A stretch of DNA of 47,147 nucleotides from Clostridiaceae bacterium. GTDB taxonomy: Bacteria > Bacillota > Clostridia > Saccharofermentanales > Fastidiosipilaceae. The translations under genes were made by a program, and so were the position numbers. The first letter of the stretch is position 1, and the number at the start of each line of letters is the position of its first letter. This document shows positions 20,638 through 44,407 of this stretch, piece after piece. Where the stretch lies: positions 1 to 47,147 of the forward strand of contig JAAYOA010000061.1 in the NCBI GenBank assembly GCA_012520525.1. Reading direction: 5' to 3'. Below the pieces are notes generated by a model. The model did not search any database and was not told where the DNA came from. It saw nothing but the letters and a program-made list of their open reading frames with translations.

Positions 20638-21990
20638 ATGTTGCAATTTAATATGAAGAATGCAGCTCAATTTGTCTCTCAGCAGGAAATGGATAATCTG
20701 AGAGCACAAATGAAACTGGCTCAACTACAAACGCTAGAAAAGAATGGCCCGGGCAATGACTTTTTGGGCTGGGTCGATTTACCCGTCGACTATGACAAAG
20801 AAGAATTTAATCGCATCAAAAATGCGGCAACTCGCATCCAAGAGCATTCTGGCTTACTGGTCGTGGTCGGAATTGGTGGCTCTTACCTAGGTGCCCGTGC
20901 TGTAATTGAACTATTGTCACATCACTTTAATGACTACTTGCCTGGCAACAAACGTAAATTCCCGCGCATTGTCTTTGCCGGCAACAACATTAGTGGAGCT
21001 TATCTGGCAGATTTGATGGATGTGCTAGATGAGTATTCTGTCTCGTTAAATGTGATTTCTAAATCGGGTACAACGACTGAACCGGCCATTGCATTCCGTA
21101 TTTTGCGCAACTATATGGAGGATAGATACGGCAAAGAAGCAGCCAAAGATCGTATATTCTGTACCACAGATCGCAACAAAGGTGCTTTGAAGCATCTTGC
21201 GGATCAAGAAGGATACGAGACGTTTGTCATACCCGATGATATCGGCGGACGTTACTCCGTTTTGACAGCGGTAGGACTCTTACCAATTGCCGTCGCTGGC
21301 ATTTCTATCGACGATTTAATGGCTGGAGCTGCCCAGGGCAGAGAACGCTTTGCAAATACGAGTTTTACAGATAATGATGCCGCCCAGTATGCCGCAGCCA
21401 GAACTTGCCTGATGCGCAAGGGTTATGAAATAGAGATTCTGGTCAATTACGAACCGGCCTTCCATTATATGACGGAGTGGTGGAAACAACTCCAAGGTGA
21501 AAGTGAAGGCAAGGACAATCGAGGTCTTTTCCCTGCCGGTGTTGATTTTTCCACCGACTTGCATTCGATGGGGCAATATATTCAGGCGGGACGTCGCATT
21601 CTGTTCGAGACGGTTGTCAGCTTTGAGGATGCCGGCCGCACAGTTGAGATACCCAAAGATGAAGCCAATCTTGATGGCTTAAACTTCTTGGCTGGAATGG
21701 GCATGGATGAAGTTAATCAAAAAGCAATGCAGGGCACAGTGTTAGCCCACGTCGACGGCGGTGTGCCAAATTTAGCTATCAATCTCAGTGAGCGGACAGC
21801 CTTTAGTTGCGGCGAACTTATTTATTTCTTTGAAATTGCATGTGCCTTTGCAGGTTATCTCAATGCCATCAATCCATTCGATCAACCAGGCGTCGAAGCA
21901 TATAAGAACAATATGTACAGCTTGCTCGGTAAACCCGGCTATGAAGAAGAGGGTAAAAAATTGCAAGCGCGCATTGACGCTACAAAATAA
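20638..21990 (+). CDS. pgi: Glucose-6-phosphate isomerase
   Basis: [88 protein letters not shown]. Confidence 0.97.
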
Positions 21991-22146: not shown

Positions 22147-24084
22147 TTGAATTGCGTAAACTTATCGCGCAGTTTGTTGCGCAGTGTTGAGAAGCCCGCC
22201 CGTTATGTTGGTGGTGAAGTTAATAGTGTAGTAAAAGAGGTCACAAAAGACTTAGTTCGCTTTGGATTTTGTTTTCCTGACACATATGAAATCGGCATGT
22301 CAAATATGGCGTTGCGGATTATTTATAATATTTTAAACCGCCGCAATGATGTGTGGTGTGAGCGGGTTTTTTCGCCGTGGATTGATATGGAAGCTGCTAT
22401 GAGGGAACAAGGTATTCCGCTATTTACGATCGAATCCCGAACACCAATAAATGAGTTAGATGTGCTAGGATTTACCCTGCAGCACGAACTGTCTTACTCT
22501 AATATCTTAAATATGTTAGATTTAGCTTCCATTCCTTTCTACACCCATGAGCGCGAAGATTTGTTTCCGCTGATTTGTGCCGGCGGTCCCATTGCCTATT
22601 GCTGCGAACCTATTGCCGACTTTTTAGATTTCGTAATGGTTGGCGATGGCGAGGGGTTAATTGATGATGTCATGGATATTATTGTTGCTGCGAAGACCAA
22701 ACCGAATATGACAAAGGAGGCTTTATTAGCAGAACTCTGTGGTTTGCAAGGCATCTATGTACCTTCTTTTTATGATGTAAAATATAATAACGATGGAACA
22801 GTAAAAGAGATTGAGCCTAATCATCCCGCCGCTCCAAAAAAAGTTTTAAAATATATCGTGCGGGATCTTGATCGCGTTCCTTTTCCGACACAGATGTTGG
22901 TTCCCAATACCGAGATCGTACACGACCGCATGTTTTTGGAAATTTTTCGAGGCTGTCCGCGGGGTTGTCGTTTTTGTCAAGCGGGTCAACTTTATCGTCC
23001 GGTAAGAGAGAAATTGCCCAATACCTTAGTTCAAAATGCCCTTGAAATGACAAGATCTTCTGGGTATGACGAATTGGGATTACTGTCTCTATCTACTTCG
23101 GACTATGGTTGTTTAGGTCCTTTGACAGACAATCTTTTAGAACTATTGGAACCAAAGCAAGTCAGCCTTTCCCTGCCGTCTCTGCGTCTCGATAGTTTTT
23201 CGATGGATTTGATGGAAAGGGTTTCGAGGGGACGTAGAAGTGGACTTACATTCGCCCCGGAAGCTGGGACGCAGCGCCTGCGAGATGTCATCAACAAAGG
23301 TATTACTGAAGAAGATCTTTTGACCGCTGCTGCGACTGCCTTTGCCGGAGGTTATGCCGGTATAAAACTATACTTTATGTTGGGTCTTCCTACAGAAACT
23401 GAAGAAGATGTGGCTGGCATAGCAGATTTAGCAAATAAAGTAGCAGAGGTCCATAGGAATACAACCCCTGTCAAGGGTAAACGCCGTCGACTTAGCATGG
23501 TCGTCAGCACATCAATGTTTGTACCTAAACCATTTACACCTTTCCAATGGGCAGCTCAAGACAGCATTGAAAAGATGCAGGAAAAGCAAGATATCTTGAA
23601 AGAAAACATTAAAAATAGGGGAATTCGATACAATTGGCATGATGCAACTGTTTCCCGTTGGGAAGCTGTACTGGCTAGAGGAGACAGACGGTTAGCTCCA
23701 GTTTTAGTGCGCGGTCTAAGACAAGGTCAGACTTTTGATGCATGGGACGAACAGTTTAACGGCGAAGTTTGGTTTGAAGCCATGGCTGTAGAAGGGTTGG
23801 ATCCTGACTTTTATACGACGCGACAACGCACAAAAGAGGAAATCTTTCCATGGGATCATATTGACTGCGGAGTAAGTAAGTCATTCTTCTGGTCTGAGTG
23901 GGAAAAAGCACAGCGCGCCGAATTGACGGCAGAGTGTCGCACCGCCTGTCATGCTTGTGGCGCCCAGCAATTTAAATGCGGTATTTGTCCTACCGCTCCA
24001 ACGCAAATAAAGTCAGAGCAACCCCAATCAAATGACTTTAAATCTAGTCATAGTCGTGAACAAGGAGGAGCCGCCTATGTCTGA
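22147..24084 (+). CDS. TIGR03960-family B12-binding radical SAM protein
   Basis: RYVGGEVNSVVK...FGFCFPDTYEIGMSNMALRIIY, FRGCPRGCRFCQAGQLYRPVREK, TFAPEAGTQRLRDVINKGITEEDL. TTG start. Confidence 0.93.
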   Translation: MNCVNLSRSLLRSVEKPARYVGGEVNSVVKEVTKDLVRFGFCFPDTYEIGMSNMALRIIYNILNRRNDVWCERVFSPWIDMEAAMREQGIPLFTIESRTPINELDVLGFTLQHELSYSNILNMLDLASIPFYTHEREDLFPLICAGGPIAYCCEPIADFLDFVMVGDGEGLIDDVMDIIVAAKTKPNMTKEALLAELCGLQGIYVPSFYDVKYNNDGTVKEIEPNHPAAPKKVLKYIVRDLDRVPFPTQMLVPNTEIVHDRMFLEIFRGCPRGCRFCQAGQLYRPVREKLPNTLVQNALEMTRSSGYDELGLLSLSTSDYGCLGPLTDNLLELLEPKQVSLSLPSLRLDSFSMDLMERVSRGRRSGLTFAPEAGTQRLRDVINKGITEEDLLTAAATAFAGGYAGIKLYFMLGLPTETEEDVAGIADLANKVAEVHRNTTPVKGKRRRLSMVVSTSMFVPKPFTPFQWAAQDSIEKMQEKQDILKENIKNRGIRYNWHDATVSRWEAVLARGDRRLAPVLVRGLRQGQTFDAWDEQFNGEVWFEAMAVEGLDPDFYTTRQRTKEEIFPWDHIDCGVSKSFFWSEWEKAQRAELTAECRTACHACGAQQFKCGICPTAPTQIKSEQPQSNDFKSSHSREQGGAAYV

Positions 24085-24757
24085 TCCTAATGCGGTACAA
24101 AAGTGGCAAGTTCGTCTTTGTTTTTCTATTAAAGGTGCCCTAGTTTGGTTGGGACACCTAGACATGATGAGAACAATGGAAAGGTCTTTGCGCCGAGCGG
24201 AACTGCCGCTATTCTATTCCCAGGGATTTAATCCCCGCCCTGAATTGGTTTTTGCGCTGCCGGCAGGTGTAGGCATTGAGACTGAAAGAGACTATGTGGA
24301 TATTTTTTTGAGAGAACACGTTTCGATCACTAATTTTCTAGATCGTTTGGCTAAAACAGTTCCACCAAACCTAACCCTTTTGGATGCTCATCTGGTTGTA
24401 GATGAGAAGAAAAGTATTATGGGTCGAGTATGCGCTGCAGACTACGGTTTGTATTTTCCTAAAGCAGCTTCTTTTGGGACCTTGATATGGGAAGCCCAAG
24501 CGATGCAAGTAGAAAAACATTCCAAGAAAAAAAGTCGCATCATAGATCTGCGTCCAATGCTTCTTGAAGTGTATGATAGTGAAGACTCTAATGCCCTTGA
24601 AATTAAAGTTAAGGCAGGAAGTGCTGAAAATATGCGTATGGACTTATTGAGCCAAGTTTTAGTCGACCAATTTGGCGCTTCAGAAGATAATGTTAACAAT
24701 GCTCGCATCGTTCGACATGACTTGTATTTTTTGCCGGTAAAAACAAATAAAGGATGA
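24077..24757 (+). CDS. TIGR03936-family radical-SAM-associated protein (DUF2344)
   Basis: WQVRLCFSIKGALVWLGHLDMMRTMERSLRRAELPLFYSQGFNPRPELVFALPAGVGIET. ATG 24077 has SD AAGGAGGAG and overlaps the previous stop. Confidence 0.92.
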   Translation: MSDPNAVQKWQVRLCFSIKGALVWLGHLDMMRTMERSLRRAELPLFYSQGFNPRPELVFALPAGVGIETERDYVDIFLREHVSITNFLDRLAKTVPPNLTLLDAHLVVDEKKSIMGRVCAADYGLYFPKAASFGTLIWEAQAMQVEKHSKKKSRIIDLRPMLLEVYDSEDSNALEIKVKAGSAENMRMDLLSQVLVDQFGASEDNVNNARIVRHDLYFLPVKTNKG

Positions 24758-24963: not shown

Positions 24964-27588
24964 ATGACAGTTCCATCAATTGTGCTGCCACCATACTTTT
25001 CATCTGGTATAGTCATTCAACAGCATGTACCTTTGCAACTAAAAGGAACGGCACCACCGGGATCATCCCTGGCTCTTGAATTATATTGCGAGGCACCGCC
25101 AGAAGGTGTGCCCGTTATTGTTGAGAAAAAAATTGGTCTGGTGCATACCGATCGTTGTGATGTGGATGCAGATGGCAATTTTGCACTTTTTATACCATCT
25201 TTGGGTGCTTCGTTTCACCGTTATACTCTTCATATTTATTTTATTACTCAACCGGATTCCGAAGAAGAGAAGACCTCCGAAGAAACAGATGAAGCTGATC
25301 AAAGCAAGGACGCTGAGAAAACAAAGAAAAAAAAGACACTTGTAAAACCAAGTGAAAGACTTATTGTAGAAAATATTTTGGTCGGTGAAGTCTGGGTGAC
25401 TGGTGGACAAGGCAATATGGAAATGCCCCTTTATGCCGTCAACGAAGGTCGCGATATACCCCTCTTTCAAAAGGCAGATTATGTACGTTTCTTTGTTCAA
25501 GATGCTTTTGGTATTGATCCTACAAAAGGTGCATTTAGTTATAGACCAAAACGGCGCTTTGCCAATGCCTTTTGGGTAACCAGCAATGATGATCAGAATT
25601 TACGTCATATAAGCGGACTGGCCGCTTATATCGGCATAGAATTAGAAAATGCCTTACAAGTTCCCATTGGAATTATTGATACTGCTTTAGCTGAATCAAT
25701 GGTTCATACCTGGATTGATCGAGGAACCATCCAATCAGATCGCAAGTATGTTCAGCAGTTGCAGGAGCGGGGACTATGGGTGGACAAGAAGACATGGGCA
25801 CCAAGAAGTCGTCGCAGTATTCGCCAACCGTCGGTGTTTTTTAATCACAAAATTGCACCGTTCGAAGGTATGTCTGTACGTGGATTTATTTTTGCTCAAG
25901 GTGAAAATGAAGTTGGCGATGAATATTTTTTCCAGAGAGGTTTCCTACTGCAAATCGAGAGCTGGCAGAAAGTATTTAAACCAGTTCCCGGGGAAAAATT
26001 GCGCGTCGTTTATACCGGACTATCGCCTTGTTCTTACTATGAGGAATCGGCGTCAGCGTTGCCTCGTTTTAATTTAATGTTGGCTCGACTTAGAAAAGCT
26101 GTACCCGTGCCAGCTGGGTTTGTCGCAGTTCAAGACTTAGATCCGTCTTGGGTAACTTCGCCCCCGCAGTGGCGCAACCCGCGTTATCCAGTATATAAAA
26201 GAGAACTGGCCATCCGAATCGCTACGATTATTTTAGGTATGGCTTACCGTCGTAAACTTCCGGTAACTTCCCCTGAAATCAGCCGGGTTAAACGGGTTGG
26301 CAATAAGCTCATGTTATCCCTGCGTCACCTGGAACAAAATTTAAAACTCCGCAGCGGAGATACGTCCTTGAAAGGTTTTGCCATCTGCGGTGAAGATAAT
26401 GTTTATCGACCTGCTTATGCAACCATTTTGTATGGCATCGAGGTCATGGTATGGCATCCAGACATCGCCATTCCCAAACAAATTACTTACGCATACCGCG
26501 AAATGGCTTTGGAAGCAAATCTGCAGACTGGTGAAAATTTAACGATTGCCCCCTTTTCAACATCTAATGATCCCGGAGAACCGGCGGCTGAAAATGAGTG
26601 GACGTACTGTGACCAATTATTTACTTGGGCAACGACCAAGGGTATACAAGTACAAAATAAGACCAATCTAGATAGTAAGACTAATCACGTTAGACCAGCC
26701 ACATCTGCGGTCCATACCCCAAAGGACAAGATTCGCAAACCAAAAATGGATTTGTCCTCGGATATGCTGTATCCTGGCGGTGTGTTGCCCACTGAATTCA
26801 TTTCTCAGTGGCGGGATTTGGAAGAAGTGGATGTCCGCCTAAAGCTAAACACACAGACTTTTTATTCTGGAGGTAATTCTCTAGCTGTAAGTTATGCTGG
26901 CAGCGAGGCAGATATGCCCATTTTATCGCCAGAATTAGATGCATTTTCTATGCGTCCCCATTTATATCTAAAGAATTATCATAGTTTACAAATCATGGTC
27001 TTCAATATGGACGGTCGTGTAAAAGAACTTCGTTTGGAAGGCAGTTCGCAGTGGCATCGTTTGGAAGCTTCTGTTGAATGGCATACGTTTATTTTTGACC
27101 TAAAGCCGCTGCATGAACAAAATATCAATCATATTGTTTTGCGTATTATGGATAAAATGAGGGTCGGTCTCATTTTAATCGATCACTTTGAATTGAAGCG
27201 AAATTTATTTGAACCTTTTAAAATAGAAGGTGAGGATTTCCGCTACGGTTCTAACGAACTATATGATGAAGAGTTAGAAAGGTCAAGCATTCAGTCTACT
27301 CAGTCAAAATCCACTGATGGCACGAAGGCTAAGTCAGAATCAGATGAAAAAGACATAGGTATTAGAAAACCAGATCTAAACGCCAGTCCACCACCGCAAA
27401 TTCGTCGGGTTACATTGGATAAACTTGATTTGAATGATTTTGCGGGTGTCAATGCCGACGGCAAGGCTCCTACGGAAATGGAGTTAGATAAAGCTAAAAA
27501 TATCGACAAAAGCGAGACAGAAAAGAACGGAGGATCATCCGAATTAGACCAAACTGTGGAGAGTGACGAGACCGATGCAAAAGAATAG
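24964..27588 (+). CDS. Sialate O-acetylesterase (SASA/SGNH)-like protein, probable pseudoenzyme, with C-terminal jelly-roll-like and charged tail regions
   Basis: ILVGEVWVTGGQGNMEMPLYAVNEG, FAQGENEVGDEYFFQ, SLKGFAICGEDNVYRPAYATILYGIEVMVWHPDIAIPKQITYAYREMALEANL match the SASA layout; the nucleophile Ser of GQSNM is Gly. Confidence 0.75.
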   Translation: MTVPSIVLPPYFSSGIVIQQHVPLQLKGTAPPGSSLALELYCEAPPEGVPVIVEKKIGLVHTDRCDVDADGNFALFIPSLGASFHRYTLHIYFITQPDSEEEKTSEETDEADQSKDAEKTKKKKTLVKPSERLIVENILVGEVWVTGGQGNMEMPLYAVNEGRDIPLFQKADYVRFFVQDAFGIDPTKGAFSYRPKRRFANAFWVTSNDDQNLRHISGLAAYIGIELENALQVPIGIIDTALAESMVHTWIDRGTIQSDRKYVQQLQERGLWVDKKTWAPRSRRSIRQPSVFFNHKIAPFEGMSVRGFIFAQGENEVGDEYFFQRGFLLQIESWQKVFKPVPGEKLRVVYTGLSPCSYYEESASALPRFNLMLARLRKAVPVPAGFVAVQDLDPSWVTSPPQWRNPRYPVYKRELAIRIATIILGMAYRRKLPVTSPEISRVKRVGNKLMLSLRHLEQNLKLRSGDTSLKGFAICGEDNVYRPAYATILYGIEVMVWHPDIAIPKQITYAYREMALEANLQTGENLTIAPFSTSNDPGEPAAENEWTYCDQLFTWATTKGIQVQNKTNLDSKTNHVRPATSAVHTPKDKIRKPKMDLSSDMLYPGGVLPTEFISQWRDLEEVDVRLKLNTQTFYSGGNSLAVSYAGSEADMPILSPELDAFSMRPHLYLKNYHSLQIMVFNMDGRVKELRLEGSSQWHRLEASVEWHTFIFDLKPLHEQNINHIVLRIMDKMRVGLILIDHFELKRNLFEPFKIEGEDFRYGSNELYDEELERSSIQSTQSKSTDGTKAKSESDEKDIGIRKPDLNASPPPQIRRVTLDKLDLNDFAGVNADGKAPTEMELDKAKNIDKSETEKNGGSSELDQTVESDETDAKE

Positions 27589-28435
27589 TTGGTCGGATCC
27601 ATTCGAGTACATTTCTTTGGGCAAACTTTTAAAACAATATAATATCGCCCTCAATAAACGTCTCGGACAGCATTTCTTAAGCGACTGGAACACACTACGT
27701 CGCATAGTTGAATTGGCGACTGTAAGCGAGGAGGACTTGGTTTTAGAGATAGGATGCGGCGCCGGCACGTTGACAACGACTATAGCAGCGACGGGTGCTT
27801 CAGTGATCGGTATTGAAATCGATCGTTCTTTAGCTCCCCTGCTAACAGATCGTTTTATGGACCATACGAATGTTAATATCATTTATGACGATGCGTTAAA
27901 TCTGGATTTTCAGAAGTTGCTAAATCAACAAAAAAATTTTTCTCAACTAAAGATCATAGCTAATGTGCCCTATTATATTACGTCAGCTTTGGTAGAAAAA
28001 TTTTTGCTCGAAATACCTTTTGCCGAAACTATTGTCGTTCTTGTACAACAGGAAGCGGGTGAGCATTTTACAGCAAAAAGCGGCAAATCTTTTGGACCTC
28101 TGACTGTTCTTTGTCAAACTTATGGTGAAGTGAGGGAAGTTTTTAAAGTTAAACCGTCACTTTTTTTGCCGCCCCCTCAAGTTATATCGTCGGTCATTCA
28201 GATGACTTCCAGAAAGCTACCTGTAGTTTTAGATTATTTAGCATTCTATGATTTTTTACAGAGTTGTTTTAAACAGAGAAGAAAGACATTGATCAATAAT
28301 TTGCACCACGCTTTCCCACAATTTGAAAAATCTAGTTTAGAAAAAATATTGCAAGAATTGGGTTTAGAACTTGCAATTCGACCAGATCGAGTGGATGTAA
28401 AAACATTTTGTAATTTATTCAAATATTTTTGTTAA
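27575..28435 (+). CDS. rsmA: 16S rRNA dimethyladenosine transferase RsmA/KsgA
   Basis: NKRLGQHFLSDWNTLRRIV, VLEIGCGAGTLTTTIA, IIANVPYYITSALVEKFL, RRKTLINNL. Start taken as ATG 27575 (ORF track uses GTG 27563). Confidence 0.93.
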   Translation: MQKNSWSDPFEYISLGKLLKQYNIALNKRLGQHFLSDWNTLRRIVELATVSEEDLVLEIGCGAGTLTTTIAATGASVIGIEIDRSLAPLLTDRFMDHTNVNIIYDDALNLDFQKLLNQQKNFSQLKIIANVPYYITSALVEKFLLEIPFAETIVVLVQQEAGEHFTAKSGKSFGPLTVLCQTYGEVREVFKVKPSLFLPPPQVISSVIQMTSRKLPVVLDYLAFYDFLQSCFKQRRKTLINNLHHAFPQFEKSSLEKILQELGLELAIRPDRVDVKTFCNLFKYFC

Positions 28436-30554: not shown

Positions 30555-30731
30555 TGCTTGACTTGTTGATATAGAATTAAAGACCTGCTCTTCGCTGTGA
30601 TCGAGTTTATTGGTCTGTTAAAAATCTATATAAATAAATGAGCAAAATCATTTTCAAATAATTATGTAAAGGTACATAAGTATGTATAATAAATAAGAAC
30701 ATATTGAGATTAATTTTTGTGGAGGTTTACC

Positions 30732-31607
30732 ATGAACCATTATATTGCACATATTGGTAATTTAAAATATGCCTTGAATATTGTCAGAGATGAAGCTTGG
30801 ATGGATAAAATTACTTCGGCGATATCAGATCGGGTAGAAAATCTTAAAGACAGCAATCCATCGTTAGGCACACTTCAAATTACTACCCTAGCCTTTATTA
30901 ATTTTATGAATGACTTTTACGAACTTGAAGAACAGCGCGATGAGCTTTTGGCAGCTCTTGAAAAAGCAGATCCCGAACAAGCAACCGCGTTTAAAGATAA
31001 GCTTGCCCAGGAGTTAGCATCACAGGCAAATGCATCCAAGGGAAAAAAACAAGAAAGATTAACACAGAATAATGTCCCAATCCGCACGAGCAACGAAAAA
31101 AGTCTAAAAAACAGTCCTAATCGAGCGGAGACGAAGAAACGTATAGAACCAAGTCAGAATTCTGAACAGAAACCGACAGGCTCTGATGTATCAGGAAGTT
31201 CTGAAACAACCATGTCTACATCAACGACTTCACCCTTCCAGTCATTGAGTCAGGTGCCAACAACGGAAACACCAAAAGCTCCGGCGCGCCCTGTACGTAA
31301 ACCCGGTGTTTCTATTGATCCATTGACGGGTAAACCTCGGGAGGTAGACCGCAGCAAGCAGTCGACGGCGATCGACCCTTTAGCGCCGAAACGAAAAAAG
31401 ACAGAAAAAGGGGATATTAATCCTTTTGCACATAGGACGAAAAAAGAATCATATTCGATTGATCCATTTACCGGTAAACCACGCCAAAGTCAATCTGCTA
31501 AACGTTCTGGAACTGGTACTTCTAAATCATCCCGAGAGCACGATTCAAAGAAAGACAGATCGGATCACAAAGGACGCCGCGGTAGCAGTATTAATCCTTT
31601 TAAGTAA
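30732..31607 (+). CDS. ZapA-like cell-division protein with long low-complexity C-terminal extension
   Basis: N-terminal about 90 aa fit ZapA (short beta region, then KITSAISDRVENLKDSNPSLGTLQITTLAFINFMNDFYELEEQRDELLAALEKA). ATG 30732 has SD GGAGG. Tail has repeated SIDPxTGKPR-like motifs. Confidence 0.65.
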   Translation: MNHYIAHIGNLKYALNIVRDEAWMDKITSAISDRVENLKDSNPSLGTLQITTLAFINFMNDFYELEEQRDELLAALEKADPEQATAFKDKLAQELASQANASKGKKQERLTQNNVPIRTSNEKSLKNSPNRAETKKRIEPSQNSEQKPTGSDVSGSSETTMSTSTTSPFQSLSQVPTTETPKAPARPVRKPGVSIDPLTGKPREVDRSKQSTAIDPLAPKRKKTEKGDINPFAHRTKKESYSIDPFTGKPRQSQSAKRSGTGTSKSSREHDSKKDRSDHKGRRGSSINPFK

Positions 31608-36336: not shown

Positions 36337-37407
36337 TCACTGCTTAGAATTGTCAAGTTTTTTTAGGTAATTTAAAACAATTTCAATGTATCGTTCCTGA
36401 TCATCAAAAAATGATTCGTAAAGCCCTGTACTTTTGCTAGTATAGACATCCGTCAAACCATGATGCTGAGTCAGTCGTGCTGTAGACACAGCATTTGTAT
36501 TTTGTGAATCTATCTCGCCGTACGATGTTTGTTGAATGATTAAAACTGGGATGGGCAAGTCGCGGACACTTTTTGTAATATCAATATTTTTTGCGAGGCC
36601 TGCAGTGAGGCGAACAGCGTAGGGAACGGTGTGTTTGGTAATTGAGTGCAAGAAGAAATCACCCTCTTGTACAGCATATTTAATATAATCATCGGAAAAG
36701 GGCAGGGGAGAGTCGAGAATCATGCCTTTGATAGCGTTGCGTCTAAATGTTAAGTTGTGGAGAGCCTCATTGGCAACTTCTTCAATGACTTCGGTTGCTT
36801 GACCGTCACTGACTTCACCTTTAGAGTTAGGAAGATAGCCCTCTGGCAAGTGATTCCAGGCGGCTATTGCGGAAGTCACCCCACATCCGATGCCGTATAA
36901 AACGACATCAGGAGATCCGGTCGCATTATAAAGATAACGCATGGCGGCAACCACATCCTCCCACTCGGTATAACCGAAAGTTGATAATTCGCCATCTGAT
37001 GAACCAGCATGACGTTGGTCAAAGGTTAAAACATTATAACCGACCTTGTTGGCAATTTGAATTAGCTCCCTCGTCTCGTTGCCGAAGGGCAAGCGATGGC
37101 TGGCATGGGGGTGAATGATAATTAAACTGATGCCATTTGAATTTTTTGCCGGAAAAAACCAACCATTTAAATTAGTATGGTCATCTAATGATAGAAATGT
37201 CACTGGAATGAAAGAATGCATATTGTTAGCAGCATAGGTATCCAATGAAACTTTTTCGTCCCGCATTAGTTTATTTCCTTGGATAAAAGTCAACCCAGCA
37301 AAAAGAATGGCCATCAAAGCGACCAAAAGAAGAATTATGGTAAATCTAATAAAGCGTCCTTTGCCTTTTTTAGGTTTAGACGCGACAGCAGTCTGTGTTC
37401 TTCGCAT
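36337..37407 (-). CDS. Membrane-anchored alpha/beta hydrolase-fold protein, catalytic triad apparently absent
   Basis: N-terminal TM segment; LIIIHPHASHRLPFGNE...VLTFDQRHAGSSDGELSTFGYTEWEDVVAAMRYL; nucleophile elbow reads YGIGCG. Confidence 0.8.
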   Translation of the reverse strand: MRRTQTAVASKPKKGKGRFIRFTIILLLVALMAILFAGLTFIQGNKLMRDEKVSLDTYAANNMHSFIPVTFLSLDDHTNLNGWFFPAKNSNGISLIIIHPHASHRLPFGNETRELIQIANKVGYNVLTFDQRHAGSSDGELSTFGYTEWEDVVAAMRYLYNATGSPDVVLYGIGCGVTSAIAAWNHLPEGYLPNSKGEVSDGQATEVIEEVANEALHNLTFRRNAIKGMILDSPLPFSDDYIKYAVQEGDFFLHSITKHTVPYAVRLTAGLAKNIDITKSVRDLPIPVLIIQQTSYGEIDSQNTNAVSTARLTQHHGLTDVYTSKSTGLYESFFDDQERYIEIVLNYLKKLDNSKQ

Positions 37408-39677: not shown

Positions 39678-41831
39678 ATGCGCAAGCTCAGCTATTTTAT
39701 TGTTCGCCACCGCAAACTAATTATGGTTGTCTTCATTATTCTATGTGTCTTATCCGTGATCGGTATGACACAAGTAAAAATCAACTACAGTTTACAGGAT
39801 TATTTGCCAAAAGATGTTCCTTCAACCCAGGCAATTGATAAATTGTCTGAAGAATTTGATATGACACTTCCTAATGCACAGGTCATGGTGCCAATCGACT
39901 CGATCCAAGAGGGTCTGCAAATTAAAAACGATTTGAGACGAAGCGACGGTGTTATATCTGTTCTCTGGTTGGACGATAGTGTTGATTTGGCAGTACCTAT
40001 CGAAATGGCCGATCAAGCTACTGTAGAGGGCTTTTATAAAGACGGAATGGCTCTCTATCAAGTAGCGATCAACACCAACGATGCCGAGAGTAAGCTAGAA
40101 GCAATATATGACTTACACGAAGATGTGAGGGTGAGTGGCAATTTAGTAGATTTAGCCAATGCCCAATTCTCGTCCCAGCATGAAATTGGAAGAATTACAT
40201 TATTTGTAATCCCAATTGCTTTGATCATTCTATTAATTAGTACCCATTCATGGTTAGAACCATTTGTGTTTGCTGTTGCGATTGGTGTCGGCATTTTATT
40301 AAACATGGGTACAAACTTTTTTATAAAAGAAATTTCATTTATAACCCAGACAATAGCCGCTGTTTTACAGCTCGCTGTTTCGATGGACTATGCCATCTTT
40401 TTATTGAATCAATTTAATCAACTACGCCAGGAAGGTTATGATGCAGAAGAGGCCATGGCCTTGGGCATTCAAAAGTCGGTAACGGCAATCGCTTCGTCAG
40501 CTATGACAACGGTCTTTGGATTTTTAGCACTAATCTTTATGCGGTTTTCATTAGGAGCTGACTTAGGCTTAGTCATGGCTAAGGGAATATTATTTAGTTT
40601 TATCTCTGTCATTATTTTCATGCCTGTTTTACTTTTAGGTGTTTATAAATTTATAGATAAGACAACCCACCGACCTTTTATACCAGATTTTACTTTTCTC
40701 GGACGCTTTGTCATTAAAGCCCGTTGGGGAATAATAATTTTAGGTGCCATATTAATTTTACCGGGTTTTCTCGGCAGTCGCAGCAACAAATTTATTTATG
40801 GCAACATAGGTTATCCTGATGACTCTAAAATTTTTGAGGATCGACAACTTATTAATGATCATTTTGGCATCAATCAACAGCTTTCGCTATTAGTCCCTCG
40901 TGGCAATATACCAAAAGAATTAGAACTCGAAGAAAAGTTAGAATCAGTGCCAGAAATAAAGTCGGTCATCTCCTATGTGTCCACGGTAGACAAAGCTATT
41001 CCGACCGACGTGGTTCCTGAGGATCAATTGTCCATGCTGATGTCGGACAACTACAGCAATTTTATAATCACGGCAGAGATGCCCGGTGAAGGAGATAAAA
41101 CCTTCCGAGTTGTTGAAGAAGTGCGTCAAATTGCTCACTCCGTTTATGATGAGAATTATTATCTAAATGGATTAAGTGTTGTCATGATGGACATGAAAAC
41201 AACCATAGAGGCGGACGAGAAGATCGTCAACGGTTTAGCCATTTTGGCTATCGCCTTGACCATTATGTTTGCCTTCAAATCTTTAACTTTGCCCCTTATT
41301 TTAGTACTGACGATCGAGCTCGCTATTTGGATTAACTTATCGGTGCCCTATTTTTCTAATATTGAAATCAGTTATGTCGGTTACCTCATTATTAGTACTG
41401 TTCAGTTGGGTGCTACGGTGGACTATGCAATTTTCTATACCGATAAATATTTGACGCATCGACGAACCATGAAACGAAAACAGGCTATTTTAAAGACGTC
41501 TGGAACAGTTATAAAGTCTCTTTTACCACCTGCCCTGATTTTGACTTGTACAGGCCTTGTTCTGAACATGATTTCTTCGTTGTCTATTGTTAGTGAACTG
41601 GGAGAAATTTTGGCTAGAGGAGCAGTACTATCATTCACAATGGTTATTTTTTTACTGCCTTGCCTGTTGTACTACTTTGACTTTATTATTCGCAAAACAA
41701 CGAGGGGTCTACACCTTATGCACGATGAAGTACTGCATCATCGATTACATCATCGAAAGCGTTCATCTAAAAATGAAGCAACAAATTCTTTGGCTAACAA
41801 ACCTTCTCACACAGAGAGGAGCAATCCATGA
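39678..41831 (+). CDS. MMPL/RND-family transporter
   Basis: Two repeats of the RND/MMPL membrane core: TIAAVLQLAVSMDYAIFLLNQF...ALGIQKSVTAIASSAMTTVFGFLAL and ISTVQLGATVDYAIFYTDKYL. Confidence 0.92.
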   Translation: MRKLSYFIVRHRKLIMVVFIILCVLSVIGMTQVKINYSLQDYLPKDVPSTQAIDKLSEEFDMTLPNAQVMVPIDSIQEGLQIKNDLRRSDGVISVLWLDDSVDLAVPIEMADQATVEGFYKDGMALYQVAINTNDAESKLEAIYDLHEDVRVSGNLVDLANAQFSSQHEIGRITLFVIPIALIILLISTHSWLEPFVFAVAIGVGILLNMGTNFFIKEISFITQTIAAVLQLAVSMDYAIFLLNQFNQLRQEGYDAEEAMALGIQKSVTAIASSAMTTVFGFLALIFMRFSLGADLGLVMAKGILFSFISVIIFMPVLLLGVYKFIDKTTHRPFIPDFTFLGRFVIKARWGIIILGAILILPGFLGSRSNKFIYGNIGYPDDSKIFEDRQLINDHFGINQQLSLLVPRGNIPKELELEEKLESVPEIKSVISYVSTVDKAIPTDVVPEDQLSMLMSDNYSNFIITAEMPGEGDKTFRVVEEVRQIAHSVYDENYYLNGLSVVMMDMKTTIEADEKIVNGLAILAIALTIMFAFKSLTLPLILVLTIELAIWINLSVPYFSNIEISYVGYLIISTVQLGATVDYAIFYTDKYLTHRRTMKRKQAILKTSGTVIKSLLPPALILTCTGLVLNMISSLSIVSELGEILARGAVLSFTMVIFLLPCLLYYFDFIIRKTTRGLHLMHDEVLHHRLHHRKRSSKNEATNSLANKPSHTERSNP

Positions 41832-44407
41832 CTTTTATTTCTAAAAAATTAGATAAATTGGGGAACAAATTATTGCGTCACAAATCTGGTTGGATAAAGT
41901 TCTGTAGTGGAATTTTAAGCGTTGGTCTGCTTATACCGACTGTGACAGTTTTTGCAGAGACTGAAACTGCAACGACCTCAAACTCTAATAATGAAATTCA
42001 AGATTTTGTAGGTCTAAGCGAGGGCAAGAGCGAAATTATCTATGCCAGCTTAAGTGGCGATGGAACTGTAAAAGATGTCTATGTGGTCAATCGATTCAAT
42101 GAGGACGCTGATTCGATCATTAAGGATTATGGCGATTATACAGATGTTCATATGCTTTCACGACAGGGCTCTATAACAAAAAAGGACGGTTACGTCGAAG
42201 TTAAGACGGGAGATGAACCGCTCTACTACCAAGGTCGATTAGGCTCGAAAAAGTTACCCTGGAAGTTCAATTTCAAGTACAAACTGGATGGAAAAGATGT
42301 TGATATTGATGAGCTATCGGGTGCTAGCGGAAAATTGTCCTGCGAAATAAATATTGAAGCTTTAAAAGAGACTTCTGAACCAGATCAATATAATCCTTGG
42401 GCAGATGGAAATATGCTACAAATAACTGTTACGCTTCCCAGTGACAGGGTAAAGAATCTAGAAACTTCTTCGGGAACACTGGCGGAAGCTGGCAGCAATT
42501 ATACGATCGCTTTTATAGTCATGCCCAGAACAGCCCAAAGTACCTTTAAGTTTTTCGCAGATGTGGAGAATTTCTATATGCCTTCCATGCAAATCGCGGG
42601 TGTACCCTTTAGTATGGATTTATCCGGTGTTAATGTATCCTCGATTATGGAAAACGATGAAATTCAAAAATTACAGGATGGGACCAACGATCTTGCTCAA
42701 GGTTCGCGAAAACTGGCTGAAGGGTTAGCTGAATTAAACAATGCTAACGAGACTTTAAAAAGTGGATTAGGTGAAATTACAACTGGCGGCAGTGAATTGC
42801 AGAGCAGTGGTAATCAGGTTGCCGACGGTATTAATCAATACACTGGAGGTGTTCAAAAATTAGCCGGCGGAAGTAGCTATCTTTCATACGGTCTGAAAGA
42901 ATCTGTCAATGGAGCTCAAGCTCTGACGGCTGGGGCAAAGAATTTGGAATCTGGTGTTAAACAATATACTTCCGGTGTTAATCAGTACGTAGAAGGAACT
43001 GAGCAACTGCTCGATGGTGTCGTTAAGTTAGATGAGGAAACTGAACCTCTTATGACGGGGCTGGATCAGCTGGCGATAGGGTTGGATGAACTAGCTAAAG
43101 GAGATCAGTTAGTTGAAAGTTCTGCCCAGATTCAACAGACATTACAACAGATTAGTACCGAAATTTCGGCGTCGGGAGGATCTCTTAATTTAGACGAGTT
43201 AGACCAGATGTTAGAGTCTTTAAATCAGGCAGGTGCGAATTTAGCAACTGGTTCAAGTGAATTCTTAACAGCGTTAGATAACGTCATAACCTCTGTAAAT
43301 GGATTAAATCAGGCAGCTGATGGATTGGCCGCAGGTATGACCAGTCTTATACAAGGATTAGAACAACAGACTGCCATGAGCAACGAAACCATCTCTGCTA
43401 CCCTTGGCTTGTCGTCTGAAGCATTGAATAATCCAGATGTTTTGACGGTGTTAGCCTATCATCGTCAAATGTCGGAAGAAACATTATCAGGATTAAAACA
43501 AATGACAGACTTACAGGTCAATCCACAAGCACCCGTTCCAATTTTACAAAATGGTTTGAGTCAATTGGCTACTGGCTTAGCTGAAATGAGGTCTCAATAT
43601 GCCGCTCTAGATACCGGTATTCAACAGTTTAGTTTAGCCCTGCCAAAGTTGGCCGCTCTGACTGATTTGGTTAAATTGGGAGGAGGTCTGCAAACGTTGA
43701 GTGTACACTATAACCAGTTCCATCAAGGGTTGACGTTATATGTAAGTGGCGTCAATATGTTTCGACAGTACTTTGATAAAAATGATCCAAACAGTGTGTA
43801 CGTAGGTCTGCAAAAAATGGTTGGTGGCATCAACACCTTGAGTAATGGAGCGAAACAATTAAAAGGAGCCGGCGAACAATTGAAAAATAGCGGTTCCGAT
43901 TTGATCAACGGTCAGTCTCAAATGTATCAAGGTTTGACAGGTCTTTCGTCAGGTCTACAAAAGTTATCCGCAGGTTTTGAGCAATACATTTCAGGTCTAG
44001 AACAAATTGCCGGTCGCTCAAAAGAGCTTTCAGGCGGAGTGCGTCAGTATCTGGATGGCACAGATCAATTAATTACAGGTCTAAATGAGTGGGCTGGAGG
44101 CTATCATCTCTTTGGCGAAGGCATTGACAAAAGTGCGGCAGGGGGAAACGAATTAGCAGACGGTATGGGAACGTTTAACGAAGAAATACTGGATATCGAC
44201 GATCAGTTTGAAGATATGATGGATGACTTGCTAGCCGAATACGAGGGCGAGACACCTCCTTCTTTCACATCTTCAAATAACAAAATAGCCTTGGTACAAT
44301 TTGTCATCTTGACGGAATCAATTCCCGAAGTTGAAGAGGAGGTGCCCGTGGAGACACCTGAAGAACCAAAGGGTTTCTGGGATAAATTATTAGATCTTTT
44401 TCGTTGA
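41828..44407 (+). CDS. Secreted L-x-x-G heptad-repeat coiled-coil protein, coupled to the MMPL transporter
   Basis: Signal-peptide-like N-terminus (FCSGILSVGLLIPTVTVFAE); two blocks of XXXLXXG heptads (LQDGTNDLAQGSRKLAEGLAEL...; LSSGLQKLSAGFEQYISGLEQ...); 4-bp overlap with the upstream gene; C-terminus GFWDKLLDLFR. Confidence 0.85.
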   Translation: MTFISKKLDKLGNKLLRHKSGWIKFCSGILSVGLLIPTVTVFAETETATTSNSNNEIQDFVGLSEGKSEIIYASLSGDGTVKDVYVVNRFNEDADSIIKDYGDYTDVHMLSRQGSITKKDGYVEVKTGDEPLYYQGRLGSKKLPWKFNFKYKLDGKDVDIDELSGASGKLSCEINIEALKETSEPDQYNPWADGNMLQITVTLPSDRVKNLETSSGTLAEAGSNYTIAFIVMPRTAQSTFKFFADVENFYMPSMQIAGVPFSMDLSGVNVSSIMENDEIQKLQDGTNDLAQGSRKLAEGLAELNNANETLKSGLGEITTGGSELQSSGNQVADGINQYTGGVQKLAGGSSYLSYGLKESVNGAQALTAGAKNLESGVKQYTSGVNQYVEGTEQLLDGVVKLDEETEPLMTGLDQLAIGLDELAKGDQLVESSAQIQQTLQQISTEISASGGSLNLDELDQMLESLNQAGANLATGSSEFLTALDNVITSVNGLNQAADGLAAGMTSLIQGLEQQTAMSNETISATLGLSSEALNNPDVLTVLAYHRQMSEETLSGLKQMTDLQVNPQAPVPILQNGLSQLATGLAEMRSQYAALDTGIQQFSLALPKLAALTDLVKLGGGLQTLSVHYNQFHQGLTLYVSGVNMFRQYFDKNDPNSVYVGLQKMVGGINTLSNGAKQLKGAGEQLKNSGSDLINGQSQMYQGLTGLSSGLQKLSAGFEQYISGLEQIAGRSKELSGGVRQYLDGTDQLITGLNEWAGGYHLFGEGIDKSAAGGNELADGMGTFNEEILDIDDQFEDMMDDLLAEYEGETPPSFTSSNNKIALVQFVILTESIPEVEEEVPVETPEEPKGFWDKLLDLFR

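What the first reader, a model, noticed from the sequence alone, without database searches (positions are those of the whole stretch)
24964..27588. Sialate-O-acetylesterase-like protein with Ser-to-Gly nucleophile loss
The protein keeps the SASA layout, but the block I motif GEVWLxxGQSNMEMPL reads GEVWVTGGQGNMEMPL; the codon is GGC (Gly) at the nucleophile position. The usual Asp-x-His (DIHP) segment aligns by eye with PSWVTSPPQWRNPRYPVYKRELAIRI, which has neither residue. The surrounding fold is well conserved, suggesting a maintained binding or structural role. It also has an insert of KKKK/EE-rich residues, a beta-rich CBM-like C-terminal region and a charged tail, and no obvious signal peptide.
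Basis: partly seen in the sequence, partly recalled or inferred. Interest (0 to 1): 0.66.

Follow-up and report, generated by a model that had tools for sequence, protein, structure and literature searches.

The report
Conserved pseudo-esterase of Clostridia
This gene makes a protein with the full shape of a sugar-acetate-removing enzyme (CE20/sialate O-acetylesterase) but without its cutting residues, and its relatives across one bacterial order have lost those residues several separate times while the gene stayed in place and, in the relatives that could be tested, under selection, which points to a second, non-enzymatic job.

Summary
ORF 24964-27588 (874 aa) is a CE20/SIAE-type SGNH protein with Gly150 (GGC) at the nucleophile, Glu244 at the oxyanion-hole Gly and Tyr408 at the catalytic His. 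The missing block V Asp is not diagnostic: Pro there is shared by Ser/His-intact relatives. The change is neither recent nor private. The gene is a syntenic ortholog (PGI-radical SAM-DUF2344-here-rsmA) with homologs in 138 of 148 genomes of the order. Ser and His are both kept in only 10 of 41 sampled orthologs, against 10 of 10 outgroup CE20s. One common loss is rejected (AU p 1.6e-39); at least five losses are needed, with Ser-to-Asp arising independently in two families. Pairs lacking Ser or His still show dN/dS 0.06-0.16, like intact pairs, and a fully degenerate member still folds as CE20 (TM 0.82). Best reading: a cytosolic CE20 esterase repurposed as a non-catalytic, probably carbohydrate-binding pseudoenzyme. 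The ligand is unknown. Cautions: selection on the window's own copy could not be measured (no close relative), its branch is long, one family member is nearly unrecognisable, and four relatives lack the gene.

The parts
24964..27588 (+). CE20/SIAE-like pseudo-esterase, 874 aa
24964..25245 (+). N-terminal beta domain (residues 1-94), starts with LPPYFSSGIVIQQ at residue 8, no signal peptide
25246..25356 (+). charged EE/KKKK insert (residues about 95-131), predicted disordered; shorter, different or absent in relatives
25357..26253 (+). SGNH-fold domain (residues about 132-430), no ancillary-domain insertion
25384..25431 (+). block I GEVWVTGGQGNMEMPL
25411..25413 (+). Gly150 (GGC) at the nucleophile Ser position
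25693..25695 (+). Glu244 at the oxyanion-hole Gly position (Gly199 in Fl8CE20_II)
   Evidence: PMC12313940
25897..25905 (+). block III QGE (residues 312-314), retained
   Evidence: PMC9487903
26179..26187 (+). block V: Pro406 at the Asp and Tyr408 at the catalytic His position
26269..26568 (+). beta-sandwich (residues 436-535), the most conserved region among the non-catalytic orthologs
26821..27201 (+). C-terminal CBM11/CBM22-like beta domain (residues about 620-746)
27211..27585 (+). charged, mostly predicted disordered tail (residues 750-874), specific to this lineage in the alignment
20638..21990 (+). glucose-6-phosphate isomerase (PGI), conserved upstream neighbour
22147..24084 (+). radical SAM protein (Radical_SAM_N2 type), conserved upstream neighbour
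24032..24757 (+). DUF2344 protein, conserved upstream neighbour
27563..28435 (+). rsmA/ksgA, overlapping the 3' end of the pseudo-esterase; likely start ATG 27575

Best explanation
A cytosolic CE20-type acetylesterase (Ser-His dyad, SIAE-like, no ancillary domain, extra C-terminal CBM-like domain) became fixed in a housekeeping operon (PGI, radical SAM, DUF2344, then rsmA in this family) early in this order of Clostridia. It then lost hydrolysis repeatedly while its fold was kept. The window copy (Ser to Gly, His to Tyr, oxyanion Gly to Glu) cannot hydrolyse esters by the CE20 mechanism. It most likely works as a non-catalytic binding protein: the former active-site cleft and/or the beta-sandwich and CBM-like domains bind a cytosolic carbohydrate or a protein partner. 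Shown here: homology, residue losses, order-wide orthology and synteny, repeated independent loss, purifying selection in relatives lacking Ser or His, retained fold by prediction. Inferred: inactivity in vitro, the binding role, the ligand, and maintained function in this particular lineage.
For: Ser, His and oxyanion Gly are all replaced. No other CE20/SASA gene in the genome (PF03629: 0 matches; one homolog), so no intact paralog was found. Homologs in 138 of 148 genomes of the order. Gene order PGI-RSAM-DUF2344-gene in most f3/f4 loci and PGI...gene-rsmA in f1. The gene tree recovers f1, f2 and f3 as single clades with strong support and f4 with at most two changes, so inheritance is mainly vertical. 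Ser+His kept in 10/41 orthologs against 10/10 outgroups; all class-level CE20s outside the order with a readable block I have GQSNM. One common loss rejected, p-AU 1.6e-39; one origin of Ser-to-Asp in f1+f3 rejected, p-AU 9.5e-9. dN/dS 0.056-0.16 in pairs lacking Ser or His, the same range as intact pairs 0.12-0.16. Among non-catalytic orthologs conservation is higher in the beta-sandwich (2.76 bits) than in block I (2.63); in outgroup CE20s it is the reverse (2.48 against 3.19). AlphaFold core pLDDT mostly above 90 with TM 0.90 to 7kmm; an f2 member with block V deleted still matches 7kmm at TM 0.82.
Against: No other species of the window's genus is held, so selection on this copy cannot be measured; its branch is long (1.36), and this gene, unlike PGI, is more diverged in the window than between its relatives (34% against 45%). 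The gene is cleanly absent between PGI and rsmA in four f1 genomes (G001, G004, G005, G008) and hardly recognisable in a fifth, G006. No ligand, partner or phenotype is known; glycogen synthase and NeuB presence do not track the gene. An unrelated chemistry in the old pocket is not excluded.
Confidence: 0.68

Rival explanations
1. Slow decay: the gene is a remnant under weak constraint on the way to loss, with no present role; the ORF stays open because its 3' end overlaps rsmA and frameshifts or stops would be polar on rsmA.
For: Clean absence in four f1 genomes and an extremely degenerate copy in G006, all in the same PGI-rsmA slot; long window branch; charged low-complexity insert and tail; overlap with rsmA.
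Against: dN/dS 0.06-0.16 in Ser/His-lacking lineages; 23 columns invariant across the non-catalytic orthologs, many in the beta-sandwich; 874 codons without a stop; the predicted fold is intact; f2 keeps the gene in a quite different operon without rsmA next to it.
Confidence: 0.18
2. A new enzymatic activity in the old pocket: Ser-to-Asp with His kept (f1 g4/g8, f3 g21) and Ser-to-Gly here mark a changed chemistry (for example a metal- or water-activating Asp-His pair), not loss of catalysis.
For: GQDNM arose independently in f1 and f3 with Gln149 and Asn151 kept and, in several genera, His kept.
Against: The window copy has neither Asp nor His; other lineages of the same ortholog group have Ala, Val, Asn or a deletion there, and f2 and f4 g12 lack block V altogether, so no residue is shared that could be a common new catalyst.
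Confidence: 0.09
3. Still an esterase, using another residue as nucleophile or a substrate-assisted mechanism.
For: Gln149 and the QGE of block III, which build the oxyanion hole, are retained (PMC9487903).
Against: Ser, His and the oxyanion Gly are all gone, and no Ser, Thr or Cys lies at the nucleophile turn GGQGNM.
Confidence: 0.04
4. Sequencing error at one base (AGC read as GGC).
For: One base separates AGC (Ser) from GGC (Gly).
Against: His to Tyr and Gly to Glu in the same protein are separate changes, and relatives have non-Ser residues there too.
Confidence: 0.01

Closest known systems
CE20 carbohydrate esterases (XacXaeA/XAC1771 7kmm, PpCE20_II 9ega, Fl8CE20_II 9h4u)
   Same: Same N-terminal beta domain, SGNH domain and C-terminal beta-sandwich; best sequence and fold match; block III QGE and Gln149 kept.
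   Different: Nucleophile Ser, block V His and oxyanion Gly replaced; no ancillary domain inserted in the SGNH domain; extra C-terminal CBM-like domain and charged tail; no signal peptide, in a housekeeping operon.
Mammalian sialic acid esterase SIAE (8f9o-8f9r)
   Same: CE20 without ancillary domain; uses a Ser-His dyad without an Asp side chain (PMC12313940), the likely ancestral chemistry of this group (PLHP/PIHP block V).
   Different: SIAE keeps Ser and His; the window protein keeps neither.
Pfam SASA PF03629 (NanS, CE6-type)
   Same: Orthologs in the order hit this model above cut-off; NanS also lacks the block V Asp (PMC9487903).
   Different: The window protein itself does not match the model and lacks Ser and His.
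Clostridial CE20-like proteins outside the order (L037, L040, L165)
   Same: Same PIHP-type block V with Pro at the Asp position.
   Different: Ser, His, oxyanion Gly and Gln intact.

Membership tests
CE20/SIAE esterase (active) | SGNH fold with the CE20 domain order | tested here: met
   Foldseek 7kmm_B TM 0.90, E 4e-37; phmmer 9ega E 2e-23
CE20/SIAE esterase (active) | block I nucleophile Ser (GQSNM) | tested here: not met
   Gly150, codon GGC
CE20/SIAE esterase (active) | block V catalytic His | tested here: not met
   Tyr408
CE20/SIAE esterase (active) | block V Asp/Asn (ancillary-domain CE20 only; not used in SIAE-type dyads) | tested here: not met
   Pro406, also Pro in Ser/His-intact relatives, so not diagnostic
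CE20/SIAE esterase (active) | oxyanion-hole Gly of block II | tested here: not met
   Glu244
CE20/SIAE esterase (active) | oxyanion-hole Gln held by block III QGE | tested here: met
   Gln149, Q312-G313-E314
CE20/SIAE esterase (active) | hydrolysis of O-acetyl sugars | not testable with these tools
   needs an assay
Pfam SASA PF03629 | score above the curated cut-off | tested here: not met
   no match for the window protein; orthologs in sister genera do match
CE20-derived pseudoenzyme ortholog group of this order | orthology by conserved gene order and tree | tested here: met
   PGI-RSAM-DUF2344-gene-rsmA; f1 clade 99/97 in the gene tree
CE20-derived pseudoenzyme ortholog group of this order | loss of the catalytic dyad | tested here: met
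CE20-derived pseudoenzyme ortholog group of this order | purifying selection after loss, in this lineage | tested here: inconclusive
   dN/dS 0.06-0.16 in relatives; no close relative of the window is held
carbohydrate-binding protein (CBM11/CBM22-like) | CBM-like C-terminal fold | tested here: inconclusive
   modest Foldseek matches to CBM11 and CBM22, TM about 0.45-0.50 by target length
carbohydrate-binding protein (CBM11/CBM22-like) | glycan binding | not testable with these tools
   needs binding assays

The most novel reading that the evidence does not exclude
A whole order of Clostridia has turned a sugar acetylesterase into a cytosolic glycan sensor or scaffold tied to central carbon metabolism, by parallel losses of the active site, with independently evolved Ser-to-Asp changes marking a shared new ligand-binding chemistry in the old pocket.
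Probability: 0.15. Interest if true: 0.68.

Novelty: new variant of a known kind. Interest (0 to 1): 0.45.

Why it matters
Pseudoenzymes are well known, but here one ortholog, mostly fixed in one place in the genome, shows every stage side by side: intact Ser-His members, single losses, parallel Ser-to-Asp changes, deleted active-site loops, a nearly unrecognisable copy, and clean absence. That makes it a natural series for asking what a catalytic fold is kept for once catalysis has gone. It also warns that a sialate O-acetylesterase label transferred by similarity would be wrong for most members of this group.

Tried and rejected
Single-protein scan of genome contigs found no relative, and an alignment of 26 diverse members was too varied to scan with; a narrower alignment worked. 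Presence of glycogen synthase and NeuB as a clue to function: no correlation. Literature for SASA or SGNH pseudoenzymes: nothing found in this library. Sequencing error rejected because several catalytic positions changed. A secreted protein rejected because the N-terminus begins directly with the first beta domain (by eye; no signal-peptide program was available). An intact paralog in the same genome: none found.

Full report
What was checked. The ORF at 24964-27588 (+) is real: 874 codons, a good Shine-Dalgarno site and homology to solved CE20/SIAE esterases over both halves of the SGNH domain (9ega E 2e-23, 7kmm, 9h4u, mammalian SIAE). Block I reads GGQGNM with codon GGC at the nucleophile; block V reads WRNPRYP.

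Which residues matter. In ancillary-domain CE20 enzymes the catalytic residues are Ser112, His515 and, through a water, Asp513, with Gly199 in the oxyanion hole (PMC12313940). In SASA enzymes the Gln next to the Ser is held by a block III QGE motif (PMC9487903). Placing the window protein on these: Ser to Gly150, Gly199 to Glu244, Asp to Pro406, His to Tyr408; Gln149 and Q312-G313-E314 are kept. The Asp is not diagnostic: clostridial CE20s with intact Ser and His also have Pro there (L037, L040, L165), as do all sampled orthologs in this order that still have block V except four with Ala, and SIAE works as a Ser-His dyad without it (PMC12313940). The real losses are Ser, His and the oxyanion Gly.

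Fold. AlphaFold with 26 sequences gives pLDDT mostly above 90 over the N-terminal beta domain, the SGNH domain and the beta-sandwich; Foldseek matches 7kmm at TM 0.90 by target length. There is no ancillary domain in the SGNH domain. A C-terminal beta domain (about 620-746) resembles CBM11/CBM22, at modest TM. Three stretches are predicted disordered: the charged insert (about 95-131), 554-620, and most of the tail from 750.

Not a private mutation. Homologs occur in 138 of 148 genomes of the order, with a single homolog and no PF03629 match in the window's own genome. A named member of the same family is Oscillospiraceae bacterium HV4-5-C5C (G007). The gene sits in a conserved neighbourhood: PGI, radical SAM, DUF2344, gene, and in family f1 rsmA. 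In family f2 it sits instead beside a cupin-like regulator and folate-synthesis genes (gene names there by eye). The gene tree recovers f1, f2 and f3 each as one clade, f4 with at most two changes.

Repeated loss. Of 41 sampled orthologs, 10 keep both Ser and His; of 10 outgroup CE20s, all do. The nucleophile column shows S, D, A, G, V, N, L or a gap. Read on the tree without regain of the dyad, at least five losses are needed: f2, f3, the f1 subgroup with the window, one f4 subgroup and the single f4 row L124 (my count). Holding all dyad-less orthologs together as one clade is rejected (p-AU 1.6e-39), as is one origin of Ser-to-Asp in f1 and f3 (p-AU 9.5e-9). These groups were named after the tree was seen, and the tests share the usual caution about long branches, of which the window is one.

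Selection after loss. Pairwise dN/dS (Nei-Gojobori) is 0.056-0.16 in pairs lacking Ser and/or His and 0.12-0.16 in Ser/His-intact pairs; three pairs were too diverged for dS. So in those lineages the protein is held by purifying selection without its esterase residues. The window has no close relative in the collections, so this could not be measured for it; it is on a long branch and somewhat faster than its neighbours. An f2 member with block V deleted and GSDYL in place of GQSNM still models as a CE20 fold (mean pLDDT 85.6; TM 0.82 to 7kmm). Conservation among dyad-less orthologs is highest in the beta-sandwich, in outgroups in block I; the two sets differ in depth, so this is a pointer, not a test.

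The other side. In family f1 the slot between PGI (or DUF2344) and rsmA is empty in G001, G004, G005 and G008, and in G006 it holds a 759-aa ORF that matches the family only weakly, without GQSNM, WYQGE or the His. The gene is therefore dispensable and may be eroding in part of f1, which is where the window lies.

Function. I think it most likely that the protein works without catalysis, binding a cytosolic carbohydrate or a protein partner through the old cleft, the beta-sandwich or the CBM-like domain. This rests on the retained fold, the selection in relatives, the CBM-like domain and the PGI-linked location; no ligand or partner is known. Decay (0.18) is the main rival for this particular copy.

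Novelty. I found no description of such a group in the paper library, which lacks most subscription journals. CE20 and pseudoenzymes are both known; a CE20 pseudo-esterase group with this many parallel losses at a conserved locus is a new variant of a known kind.

Noticed in passing
30717-31607: ZapA-like protein with a roughly 200-aa charged, low-complexity tail; together with the pseudo-esterase it is one of only two proteins in the window with such a tail.
   Followed up: partly
L181 6101-8377 (of the reverse complement): G006 (same family) has a 759-aa ORF between PGI and rsmA that is barely recognisable as the same family, with all esterase motifs gone.
   Followed up: partly
L201, L202, L203, L204: Four genomes of the family lack the gene cleanly; PGI (or DUF2344) is followed directly by rsmA.
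   Followed up: yes
L141-L150: In family f2 the gene lies next to a cupin-like regulator and folate biosynthesis genes, then thymidylate kinase, and has lost block V; this neighbourhood is itself conserved.
   Followed up: partly
L113, L031, L130-L136: Independent Ser-to-Asp replacement (GQDNM) in two families, with the catalytic His kept in several genera.
   Followed up: partly
39678-44407: MMPL transporter followed by an 859-aa protein with only weak family matches.
   Followed up: no
36337-37407: 356-aa ORF on the minus strand with no Pfam match.
   Followed up: no
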